Positions 18,248-20,725 of a stretch of DNA of 64,000 bases are shown here, one piece after another. Positions within the stretch are counted from its first letter, which is position 1. Every line of letters starts with the position of its first letter. A model generated the notes under the pieces. The model made no database searches and was not told where the DNA came from. It saw only the letters and a list, made by a program, of their open reading frames with translations. Location of the stretch: NCBI GenBank assembly GCA_016288795.1, contig JAEELI010000002.1:1-64000 (forward strand). Direction: 5' to 3'. The stretch comes from Caryophanales bacterium. Lineage in GTDB: Bacteria > Bacillota_I > Bacilli_A > RF39 > UBA660. The position numbers and the translations under genes are program-made.

Positions 18248-20152
18248 TTACTTCTCTCTAATATTAATAAATATTAATAAACCTTTCAATATATCTTGAA
18301 CTTTATCATCTATTTCCAGTTCACTAATATCATTAAAACACTCAAATGATAATTCATCAAGTCTATTTAAAGCATAATTGTAACTTCCGCTTGTTTTTAA
18401 TAAATCTTGGACTTTTAAAATATCTTTTTCTTCTAAGTTTTTAGAACCATATAATTTTAAGAATTCTTGTTTATATGGTGTGTTAATTATATGAGAATAT
18501 AAAATAGTTTGTTTAAATTCCTCAATATCACTAATATTAGATTTACCTAATTCATTCTTATTACCAAATATTCCTAATAAATCATCTTTAATTTGGAAAG
18601 AAACGCCAATTCTATTTAAAACATTAACTAAATCTTGAGGTATTTCTTTATTATTTAATAAATAACCCAAAGTAACTGGTCCAATTAAAGTATAATAACT
18701 AGTTTTTAAATTATATATATTTAGAACTTCTTCTTCAGATGTGTTGTATGCAAAGTATTTACCTTTAAATGGTAAATACACATCTAACATTTCTCCTTTT
18801 ATAGTTTTAATTACAATATCATTAAAAACTTTTAAAATAGCACTTAAATTCTTATGATTTTTATATTTATTAACAATAATATTATTGGCTTCATAAAAGC
18901 CTAAGTCACCAGTGCAAATTCCAATAGAATTTGCTAATTTTAATGTTTTTTCTTGATATTCTTTATCACTAATAACATTTAAATAATTGTGACATATTCT
19001 TCTAGGTATTGTTTCTTTACCACGACGAATTTTGGCATTATCTATAATATCATCATGAATTAAAACTGAAGTTTGAAACATTTCATAAGCATAAGCTAAA
19101 TCTAAGTAGTCTTTATTCATTTTTGAATTAGACATATATGAACCTAAGGCAATTAACACTCCTCTTATATACTTACCATCTTTATTTAAATCAATAAAAT
19201 CTTTTACTATGCCTTGGATAATTTCATTATCATTATCTTTTAATAATTCATTATTAACTTTATCTTGATTTTTTTCTAATTCTTTAACTATTTTTTTATA
19301 AAATAATAAATACTCCAATAAATATTTATAATTATAAATTTCTTTAACTGGAGTCCATATAGAACCAGTAATACCTATCTTAGTTGAATCATCTATATCT
19401 TTAATTGATACAAATTTTATTAAATCTCTAATATTTTTAAAGACATAAGTTTCTGTTCGGGCACTAACGCGATTAAATAATTCTTGATCATCATCAACTA
19501 TAATCATTAAATCGCTTTTTTTAGCTAAAGCTTCACTACTATCATAATTTCTATTTAAAGATAAACAATATGAATTATTGATATCCAAATTATAATTATC
19601 ATATAAAGTCTTTAGTTTTTTTGTTAAGTCAGTAAATAATGATTTACTGACATTTTGACCACTCATAATATATTTGTTTTTATTATCACTTAATTTAAGA
19701 AAATCACTATCACTTTTAATAAATACTATTTCATTATTAAAATATTCATTAATTTCTTTAGTTTCAAAATAATTATAATCGCCAATAATAACTATTTCAT
19801 AACCCAAATCAATTTTTTCTTGAATAGTGGCTCTAATCTTATCAATATTAGAACATGTAGAATCATAATACTCTATATTATTATTATCTAAGTATTCATA
19901 AACTTCTCTACTAGAGCCATATGGGCTTAGTATAACAATATCATCATATGATACATCTCTAATATCATTAACCACTTTAATACCTATATCATTTAATTCT
20001 TTTAAAACTTTATTATTATTTAAATAATTATGATATAAATAGATATTCTTAGGATTCTCCTTTTTTATTTCTTTTTCATATATTTCATAAATTGTTGTTA
20101 ATGTTTTTGTTAAACCCTTACAACTTCCACATACACTTGCTATTTCAATCAT
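18248..20152 (-). CDS. IspH-like iron-sulfur domain fused to a trans-prenyl diphosphate synthase
   Basis: 634 residues in two parts. Residues 1-275 resemble IspH (HMBPP reductase, last step of the MEP pathway): the three cluster cysteines are present (C11 in CKGL, C100 in DSTC, C196), as are H41 and the catalytic-glutamate equivalent E130. By-eye alignment puts Tyr where IspH has His74 and His124 (Y78, Y128), Asn for Thr167, Trp for Ser269, and no Ser225-x-Asn227. Residues 310-634 are a polyprenyl synthase with first Asp-rich motif DDIID (367-371), the following RRGKETIP and second motif KDDLLG. The C-terminal half should be an active chain-elongating synthase; the reaction of the N-terminal half is uncertain. 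Confidence 0.85.
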   Translation of the reverse strand: MIEIASVCGSCKGLTKTLTTIYEIYEKEIKKENPKNIYLYHNYLNNNKVLKELNDIGIKVVNDIRDVSYDDIVILSPYGSSREVYEYLDNNNIEYYDSTCSNIDKIRATIQEKIDLGYEIVIIGDYNYFETKEINEYFNNEIVFIKSDSDFLKLSDNKNKYIMSGQNVSKSLFTDLTKKLKTLYDNYNLDINNSYCLSLNRNYDSSEALAKKSDLMIIVDDDQELFNRVSARTETYVFKNIRDLIKFVSIKDIDDSTKIGITGSIWTPVKEIYNYKYLLEYLLFYKKIVKELEKNQDKVNNELLKDNDNEIIQGIVKDFIDLNKDGKYIRGVLIALGSYMSNSKMNKDYLDLAYAYEMFQTSVLIHDDIIDNAKIRRGKETIPRRICHNYLNVISDKEYQEKTLKLANSIGICTGDLGFYEANNIIVNKYKNHKNLSAILKVFNDIVIKTIKGEMLDVYLPFKGKYFAYNTSEEEVLNIYNLKTSYYTLIGPVTLGYLLNNKEIPQDLVNVLNRIGVSFQIKDDLLGIFGNKNELGKSNISDIEEFKQTILYSHIINTPYKQEFLKLYGSKNLEEKDILKVQDLLKTSGSYNYALNRLDELSFECFNDISELEIDDKVQDILKGLLIFINIREK

Positions 20153-20170: not shown

Positions 20171-20199
20171 AAAAAAAGAAATAGACGCCTATTTCTTAA
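20171..20199 (-). terminator. Terminator of rpsP-khpA
   Basis: Minus-strand hairpin AAGAAATAG-GCGT-CTATTTCTT followed by TTTTT, at the khpA stop codon. Confidence 0.85.
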
Positions 20200-20441
20200 A
20201 AAGAATCAATATTAATTTTAACTTTTGGCATATTATTAATAGCCGCGAAAGCTTGAATTAATGTTCTAATAGATGTAGACATTTTACCATTTCTTCCAAT
20301 TACTCTTCCCATATCTGATTCAGGAACTAGTATTTCTAAAATAGTTACATCTTCATCTGCTTGAAATTCTGATACTTTTACAAGTTCAGGTTCTTTAACA
20401 ATACTTTTAACTAAATATTCAGCAAATTCTACTACAGACAT
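20196..20441 (-). CDS. khpA: KH-domain RNA-binding protein KhpA
   Basis: 81-residue single KH domain with the RNA-binding GxxG loop (GRNGK) in VIGRNGKMSTSIRTLI. KhpA pairs with KhpB/Jag and affects cell elongation and small-RNA function in Gram-positives. It follows rpsP by 8 bases, the conserved order in Bacilli; ffh, rimM and trmD, often next to this pair, are not adjacent here. Confidence 0.93.
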   Translation of the reverse strand: MSVVEFAEYLVKSIVKEPELVKVSEFQADEDVTILEILVPESDMGRVIGRNGKMSTSIRTLIQAFAAINNMPKVKINIDSF

Positions 20442-20449
20442 AATAACCT

Positions 20450-20725
20450 CTATTTAGTTTTCTTTTTGCTTTCAGCATATTTTGCCATAATACCAGCACG
20501 AGATAATATGTTTTTTACTGTATCTGTTGGTTGAGCACCATTCTTTAACCATGAAAGTGCCTTTTCCTCATCGATTGTAAAAACATCTTCTCCCTTTATT
20601 GGATTATAAGTTCCAACTGTTTCAATGAATCTTCCATCTCTTGGGAATCTTGAATCAGCTGCCACTATTCTATAAAATGGTTTTTGTTTAGATCCCATTC
20701 TTTTTAATCTTAATTTTACTGCCAT
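20450..20725 (-). CDS. rpsP: 30S ribosomal protein S16
   Basis: 91-residue ribosomal protein needed for 30S assembly. It has the family pattern [20 protein letters not shown] at the N-terminus and GTYNPI and [11 protein letters not shown] further on. An AAAGGAGG site precedes the ATG and a SigA promoter lies at 20753-20781. Operon with khpA. Confidence 0.98.

What the first reader, a model, noticed from the sequence alone, without database searches (positions are those of the whole stretch)
18248..20152. IspH-like domain fused to a prenyl diphosphate synthase, with a remodelled IspH active site
Seen: one 634-codon frame joins an IspH-like domain to a complete trans-prenyl synthase with both Asp-rich motifs. 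The three cluster cysteines (C11, C100, C196), H41 and E130 are retained. By eye, residues that hold HMBPP in IspH are changed: His74 to Tyr, His124 to Tyr, Thr167 to Asn, Ser269 to Trp, and Ser225-x-Asn227 is lost. Known: those residues bind the substrate diphosphate and deliver protons. Inference: the domain keeps a 4Fe-4S centre but may act on another substrate (such as a longer allylic diphosphate made next door), sense redox state, or regulate chain length.
Basis: partly seen in the sequence, partly recalled or inferred. Interest (0 to 1): 0.75.

Follow-up and report, generated by a model that had tools for sequence, protein, structure and literature searches.

The report
Decayed IspH domain on prenyl synthase
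In a family of uncultured gut bacteria whose isoprenoid-building pathways appear to be missing, the last enzyme of one pathway (IspH) survives welded to a prenyl-chain-making enzyme; some relatives keep a complete IspH active site although they appear unable to make its substrate, while in this species the IspH half has lost its substrate site but kept its three iron-sulfur cysteines.

Summary
The 634-aa ORF is real (minus strand): an IspH/LytB domain (2-271) and a trans-prenyl diphosphate synthase (323-581) with its catalytic motifs. AlphaFold2 (pLDDT 90.7) gives both folds, joined by one helix (269-301). Only the three Cys and E126 remain.

The fusion is a family trait: 34 of 38 same-genus genomes, plus other lineages. 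IspG and IspF were found in none of 49 family genomes; DXR and MEP or mevalonate kinases are absent from the searched genus members; type-2 IDI was not found. Yet 22 fusions keep the IspH active site, with dN/dS (0.08-0.24) near the synthase's. Others, including the window, decayed repeatedly. Pocket histidines are kept in 0 of 22 degenerate genus members; all three cysteines together in 15. In four the middle IspH domain is gone.

Best reading: the window's IspH half is a dead, probably cluster-bearing module on a working synthase fed by imported C5 units. The intact relatives suggest scavenging of HMBPP. Both functional steps are inference.

The parts
18248..20152 (-). Fusion gene: IspH-like domain plus trans-prenyl diphosphate synthase, 634 aa
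   Evidence: ORF; Pfam; full-length relatives in 34 of 38 same-genus genomes
19340..20149 (-). IspH/LytB-like domain (residues 2-271), catalytically degenerate: Cys11, Cys100, Cys196 and Glu130 kept; H41, H74, H124, T167, T168, S225, S226, N227 and S269 replaced or deleted
   Evidence: PF02401 111.6 bits, below the TIGR00216 equivalog cut-off (94.8 against 187.85); site table; IspH fold in the AlphaFold2 model
19250..19348 (-). Predicted continuous helix (residues 269-301) joining the two domains
   Evidence: AlphaFold2 model, pLDDT about 91-96; also present in the model of the shortened relative
18251..19303 (-). trans-prenyl diphosphate synthase domain (residues 284-634): DDIID 367-371, DDLLG 523-527, IPP-site G326-K327-x-x-R330
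   Evidence: PF00348 139.3 bits; invariant columns; structural match to GGPP-type synthases, Z 38
20196..20441 (-). Upstream gene, 81-aa protein that looks like a KhpA-type KH protein (context only)
   Evidence: ORF; identification by eye
20450..20725 (-). Upstream gene, 91-aa protein that looks like ribosomal protein S16 (context only); a similar small gene precedes the fusion in many same-genus loci
   Evidence: ORF; neighbourhood clusters; identification by eye

Best explanation
The protein is a short-chain trans-prenyl diphosphate synthase that carries an IspH domain inherited from an ancestral bifunctional HMBPP reductase-prenyl synthase. Shown by sequence: in the window's species the IspH half keeps its fold and the three cluster cysteines but has lost the pocket that holds HMBPP, and no gene was found for IspG, IspE or another GHMP kinase, IspF, DXR or type-2 IDI. 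Inferred: it is not an HMBPP reductase; the synthase half is the working enzyme and makes the allylic primer for undecaprenyl phosphate from IPP and DMAPP that the cell must import; and the IspH half persists as a non-catalytic, probably [4Fe-4S]-bearing module that stabilises, or redox-tunes, the synthase through the shared helix 269-301. In relatives with an intact IspH half the fused enzyme is probably still an HMBPP reductase, fed with HMBPP from outside the cell.
For: Loss of H41, H74, H124, T167, T168, S225/S226/N227 and S269; the polar pocket binding the HMBPP diphosphate is H41, H74, H124, S225, S269, T168, N227, Q166, and E126/H124 mutants have little or no activity (PMC8837944). Score below the IspH equivalog cut-off, whereas intact relatives L054 and L081 pass it. 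No IspG, GHMP kinase, IspF, type-2 IDI or DXR in the own genome; two UppS are present. Synthase motifs invariant, fold Z 38. Selective cysteine retention: in an 11-species degenerate clade C12 11/11, C96 10/11, C197 10/11, against a mean of 2.7/11 for the 54 intact-conserved columns of E. coli 93-245. SufB present. In other lineages the fusion, or a stand-alone relative of its synthase half, lies next to uppS.
Against: No cluster, activity or import has been measured. E130 (= E126) is still present, so a residual or altered chemistry is not excluded. Cysteines could be kept for reasons other than a cluster. Genomes are metagenome assemblies (own: 93% complete), and absence rests on HMM searches. 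Type-1 IDI, DXS and IspD were not searched.
Confidence: 0.55

Rival explanations
1. The Fe-S cluster is kept as a true redox, iron or oxygen sensor that switches the prenyl synthase on or off.
For: All-or-none pattern: 15 of 22 degenerate genus members keep all three Cys, the others have lost one to three of them. The same idea has been proposed for IspH-RPS1 fusions (PMC4746011). A continuous helix links the domains.
Against: Several lineages lost the cysteines and still keep the fusion (G015, G031, G019, G026, G029, G032, G006, L084-L087), so the cluster is not needed for the synthase in general. No signalling partner is known.
Confidence: 0.2
2. The IspH half is a purely structural relic; the cysteines linger by slow decay.
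For: Lineages without cysteines or without the middle domain still fold well in the model (pLDDT 92) and keep domains 1 and 3; dN/dS is higher in degenerate than in most intact pairs.
Against: Two cysteines are among the four best kept of 54 columns in the rest of a strongly decayed region, over deep divergence.
Confidence: 0.2
3. One reading: the domain reduces another substrate, such as a longer allylic diphosphate.
For: Cysteines and E130 remain; IspH is reported to accept some alternative substrates (PMC13001223).
Against: Replacements differ between lineages and include loss of E126 and of the whole middle domain; no conserved new pocket is seen.
Confidence: 0.07
4. The genomes do make HMBPP by a route without homologues of IspG, and the intact fusions finish an otherwise unknown pathway.
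For: Intact IspH under purifying selection without IspG or IspF.
Against: A non-homologous replacement of the DXR, GHMP-kinase and IspF steps would be needed as well in the genus; a published survey of 4,400 species found no circumvention of IspG or IspH (PMC10663253).
Confidence: 0.08

Closest known systems
IspH / LytB, HMBPP reductase (EC 1.17.7.4; E. coli and Aquifex structures)
   Same: Fold of the N-terminal half and the three cluster cysteines; intact relatives of the window also share every active-site residue examined
   Different: Window version has lost all three pocket histidines and most other substrate contacts; fused to a prenyl synthase; no IspG in the genome
[quoted passage not shown]
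   Same: IspH domain N-terminal to a second domain, in anaerobes; in IspH-UbiA the partner is also a prenyl enzyme
   Different: Partner here is a soluble trans-prenyl diphosphate synthase, a partner not named in the passages read; MEP pathway missing; domain decays repeatedly
Short-chain trans-prenyl diphosphate synthases, GGPP type (C. glutamicum 3qqv, M. tuberculosis Rv2173)
   Same: Fold (Z 38, rmsd 2.3 over 338-341 residues) and catalytic motifs
   Different: N-terminal IspH module; product length unknown
Isoprenoid auxotrophy of Rickettsia (PMC6854040)
   Same: Upstream MEP and mevalonate genes missing, downstream use of C5 units kept, scavenging proposed
   Different: Rickettsia lack IspH and lives in host cytoplasm; here free-living gut bacteria, several keeping an intact IspH

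Membership tests
IspH / HMBPP reductase (TIGR00216, PF02401) | LYTB fold and domain score | tested here: met
   PF02401 111.6 bits against a cut-off of 24.5; Foldseek to 3dnf, TM 0.82 by target
IspH / HMBPP reductase (TIGR00216, PF02401) | Three cluster cysteines | tested here: met
   Cys11, Cys100, Cys196
IspH / HMBPP reductase (TIGR00216, PF02401) | Substrate pocket H41, H74, H124, T167/T168, S225, N227, S269 and acid E126 | tested here: not met
   Only E126 kept in the window. Met in 22 intact relatives, apart from T167S in G016 and S226H in G040
IspH / HMBPP reductase (TIGR00216, PF02401) | Score above the curated equivalog cut-off | tested here: not met
   Window 94.8 against 187.85; relatives L054 197.7 and L081 211.1 pass
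IspH / HMBPP reductase (TIGR00216, PF02401) | Endogenous HMBPP supply by IspG | tested here: not met
   No IspG in the own genome or in 49 of 49 family genomes
IspH / HMBPP reductase (TIGR00216, PF02401) | [4Fe-4S] cluster and reductase activity | not testable with these tools
   Needs purified protein
trans-prenyl diphosphate synthase (PF00348) | Both Asp-rich motifs and the IPP-binding lysine/arginine | tested here: met
   Positions 367-371, 523-527, K327, R330 invariant in 35 fusions
trans-prenyl diphosphate synthase (PF00348) | Fold | tested here: met
   Z 38.3 to Rv2173, 38.0 to C. glutamicum GGPP synthase
trans-prenyl diphosphate synthase (PF00348) | Product chain length | not testable with these tools
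   No NCBIfam synthase subfamily cut-off is reached
IspH-RPS1 / IspH-UbiA fusions | C-terminal S1 repeats or UbiA domain | tested here: not met
   Only LYTB and polyprenyl_synt in Pfam

The most novel reading that the evidence does not exclude
A family of gut Bacilli has given up making HMBPP but keeps IspH, fused to the prenyl synthase that consumes its products, in order to live on HMBPP released by neighbouring bacteria; lineages that turned to ready-made IPP/DMAPP let the IspH half decay stepwise, first the pocket, then the cluster, then a whole domain, leaving an Fe-S pseudoenzyme such as the window's.
Probability: 0.35. Interest if true: 0.85.

Novelty: new variant of a known kind. Interest (0 to 1): 0.6.

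Why it matters
[quoted passage not shown] Here is a whole genus, and further lineages, with IspH but no detectable IspG, in which IspH is either conserved with its full active site or taken apart in steps. That makes two things testable: whether HMBPP, best known as a signal to gamma-delta T cells, is also a traded nutrient in the gut; and what a [4Fe-4S] IspH fold does once its chemistry is gone. It also adds a third kind of partner to the known IspH fusions.

Tried and rejected
MEP genes missed through incompleteness: rejected for IspG (0 of 49 family genomes, 28 of 31 genomes of other families in the class). Mevalonate pathway as IPP source: GHMP kinases absent from the own genome; the three strong hits in the genus are sugar-kinase-like by eye. 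Type-2 IDI: no convincing hit in the family. Second, canonical ispH in the own genome: none. Literature on HMBPP release or exchange by commensals: nothing useful. VIA-align rows list only the synthase half, as that tool warns; the IspH half rests on Foldseek. Conserved electron-donor or transporter neighbours: none recognised. Whether G040's missing IspF and IspG are real or assembly gaps could not be settled.

Full report
OBSERVATION. The ORF lies on the minus strand at 18248-20152 and encodes 634 aa. Pfam finds LYTB at 2-271 (111.6 bits) and polyprenyl_synt at 323-581 (139.3 bits). AlphaFold2 with 35 family members gives mean pLDDT 90.7 and pTM 0.87; Foldseek matches the two halves to IspH (3dnf, TM by target 0.82) and to GGPP-type synthases (TM 0.80-0.84), and VIA-align gives Z 38 for the synthase half. 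One predicted helix, residues 269-301, runs from the last IspH element into the synthase.

ACTIVE SITE. In an alignment with E. coli IspH and about 50 relatives the window keeps C12, C96, C197 and E126 (as C11, C100, C196, E130) and loses H41 (Asn45), H74 (Tyr78), H124 (Tyr128), T167/T168 (Gln166/Asn167), S225/S226/N227 and S269 (Trp266). Those residues form the pocket for the HMBPP diphosphate, and E126 and H124 variants have almost no activity (PMC8837944). The window scores 94.8 bits against an equivalog cut-off of 187.85 for IspH.

DISTRIBUTION. Of 38 same-genus genomes counted with the own one (G000-G037), 34 have a fusion match; G020, G024, G028 and G034 have none. Of 11 genomes of other genera in the family one, G040, has the fusion and G045 has the two halves as separate genes. 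A scan of named genome contigs gave 44 loci, from rabbit, goat, rumen and other gut samples, labelled uncultured Bacilli and the like; 14 of these loci carry the fusion outside the window's genus or at its edge, at 36-43% identity.

PATHWAY CONTEXT. IspG was found in 0 of 49 family genomes and in 28 of 31 genomes of other families of the class, and in 1 of 19 genomes behind the named loci, a 4.2-Mb outlier with a stand-alone synthase. IspF was found in 0 of 49. DXR was found in none of the 20 genus members searched and, in the family, only in G040, with a weak hit in G043 that reads as a sugar-nucleotide epimerase-like protein. GHMP kinases, which would include IspE and the mevalonate kinases, are absent from the own genome and from most of the genus; the strong genus hits (G004, G017, G030) look like sugar kinases by eye and the weak G031 hit was not examined. 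Type-2 IDI gave no convincing hit in the family. G040 keeps DXR and a true IspE (above cut-off) and may retain an MEP pathway; its IspF and IspG were not found. DXS, IspD and type-1 IDI were not searched. Two UppS genes in the own genome need IPP and an allylic primer, so an outside source of C5 units is the simplest reading; this is inference.

THREE STATES OF THE IspH HALF. (1) Intact: 22 fusions (12 of the genus, G040 and 9 others) have the E. coli residue at every site tabulated except T167S in G016 and S226H in G040. (2) Pocket lost, cysteines kept: 15 genus members including the window. (3) Cysteines lost as well, wholly or in part: 7 genus members, plus L084-L087. H41, H74 and H124 are kept in 0 of 22 degenerate genus members. 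In four genus members (G019, G026, G029, G032) the stretch between about residues 103 and 200 is missing; the model of one of them (L074, 541 aa, pLDDT 92) shows the elements of the first and third IspH domains and the joining helix, with those of the middle domain gone. On a tree of the synthase half the degenerate label needs 7 changes, at least 4 if only starred branches are trusted (quick method; the place of G040 and L091 is unsure).

SELECTION. NG86 dN/dS for close pairs: intact IspH halves 0.08-0.24, synthase halves of the same pairs 0.09-0.21; degenerate IspH halves 0.13-0.47, synthase halves 0.06-0.19. So the intact halves are conserved about as strongly as the synthase in genomes without a detectable HMBPP source, and the degenerate halves are looser but not free. 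In an 11-species degenerate clade, chosen from the tree and not by its cysteines, C12 is kept in 11, C96 and C197 in 10; among the 54 intact-conserved columns of E. coli 93-245 the mean is 2.7 and only D93, C96, C197 and I220 reach 10. These counts are not corrected for shared ancestry. The retention of cysteines without the pocket is what I would not expect from plain decay.

MECHANISM. Shown: fold, residues, gene absence within the limits above, selection pattern. Inferred: (a) the window's IspH half does not reduce HMBPP; (b) it probably still holds a cluster (SufB is present) and serves as scaffold or redox-sensitive module of the synthase; (c) the synthase makes the primer for undecaprenyl phosphate: outside the genus the fusion or a stand-alone synthase lies beside uppS; (d) C5 units are imported. 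For intact relatives, import of HMBPP is the simplest way to explain a selected IspH without IspG; a non-homologous route to HMBPP or another substrate is not excluded.

COMPARISON. IspH fusions to ribosomal protein S1 and to UbiA are known, with an Fe/O2-sensor role suggested for the first and local supply of C5 units for the second (PMC4746011); the passages read name further single fusions but no prenyl diphosphate synthase. Isoprenoid scavenging with loss of the upstream pathway is known in Rickettsia (PMC6854040). A survey of 4,400 species found IspG and IspH rigid (PMC10663253). New here, to my knowledge, are the IspH-synthase fusion, IspH conserved without IspG, and stepwise decay to a cysteine-keeping pseudoenzyme. 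Absence from the searched literature is not proof of novelty.

Noticed in passing
L099 6728-8038 (-) and 15199-16478 (+), G000 contig C5 outside the window: Two uppS genes about 8 kb apart, each next to a 175-aa membrane protein gene and with patatin-like genes between them: looks like an inverted duplication.
   Followed up: no
L112 13224-14078 (G030:C29): A same-genus genome with a degenerate fusion also has a stand-alone IspH with all active-site residues, again without IspG; contamination of this 16.8-kb contig is not excluded.
   Followed up: partly
L116 3176-4030 and L121 10078-11217 (G040); L127 62-958 (G044): G040 keeps IspE and DXR although IspF and IspG were not found; G044 has an IspE-like gene with no IspF, IspG or IspH found.
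   Followed up: partly
window 20171-20197 (-): Terminator-like hairpin with a T run between the khpA-like gene and the fusion start.
   Followed up: no
L048 (G014) and L049 (G017): Two species have lost most of the middle IspH domain yet still keep a cysteine aligned at each of the three cluster positions.
   Followed up: no
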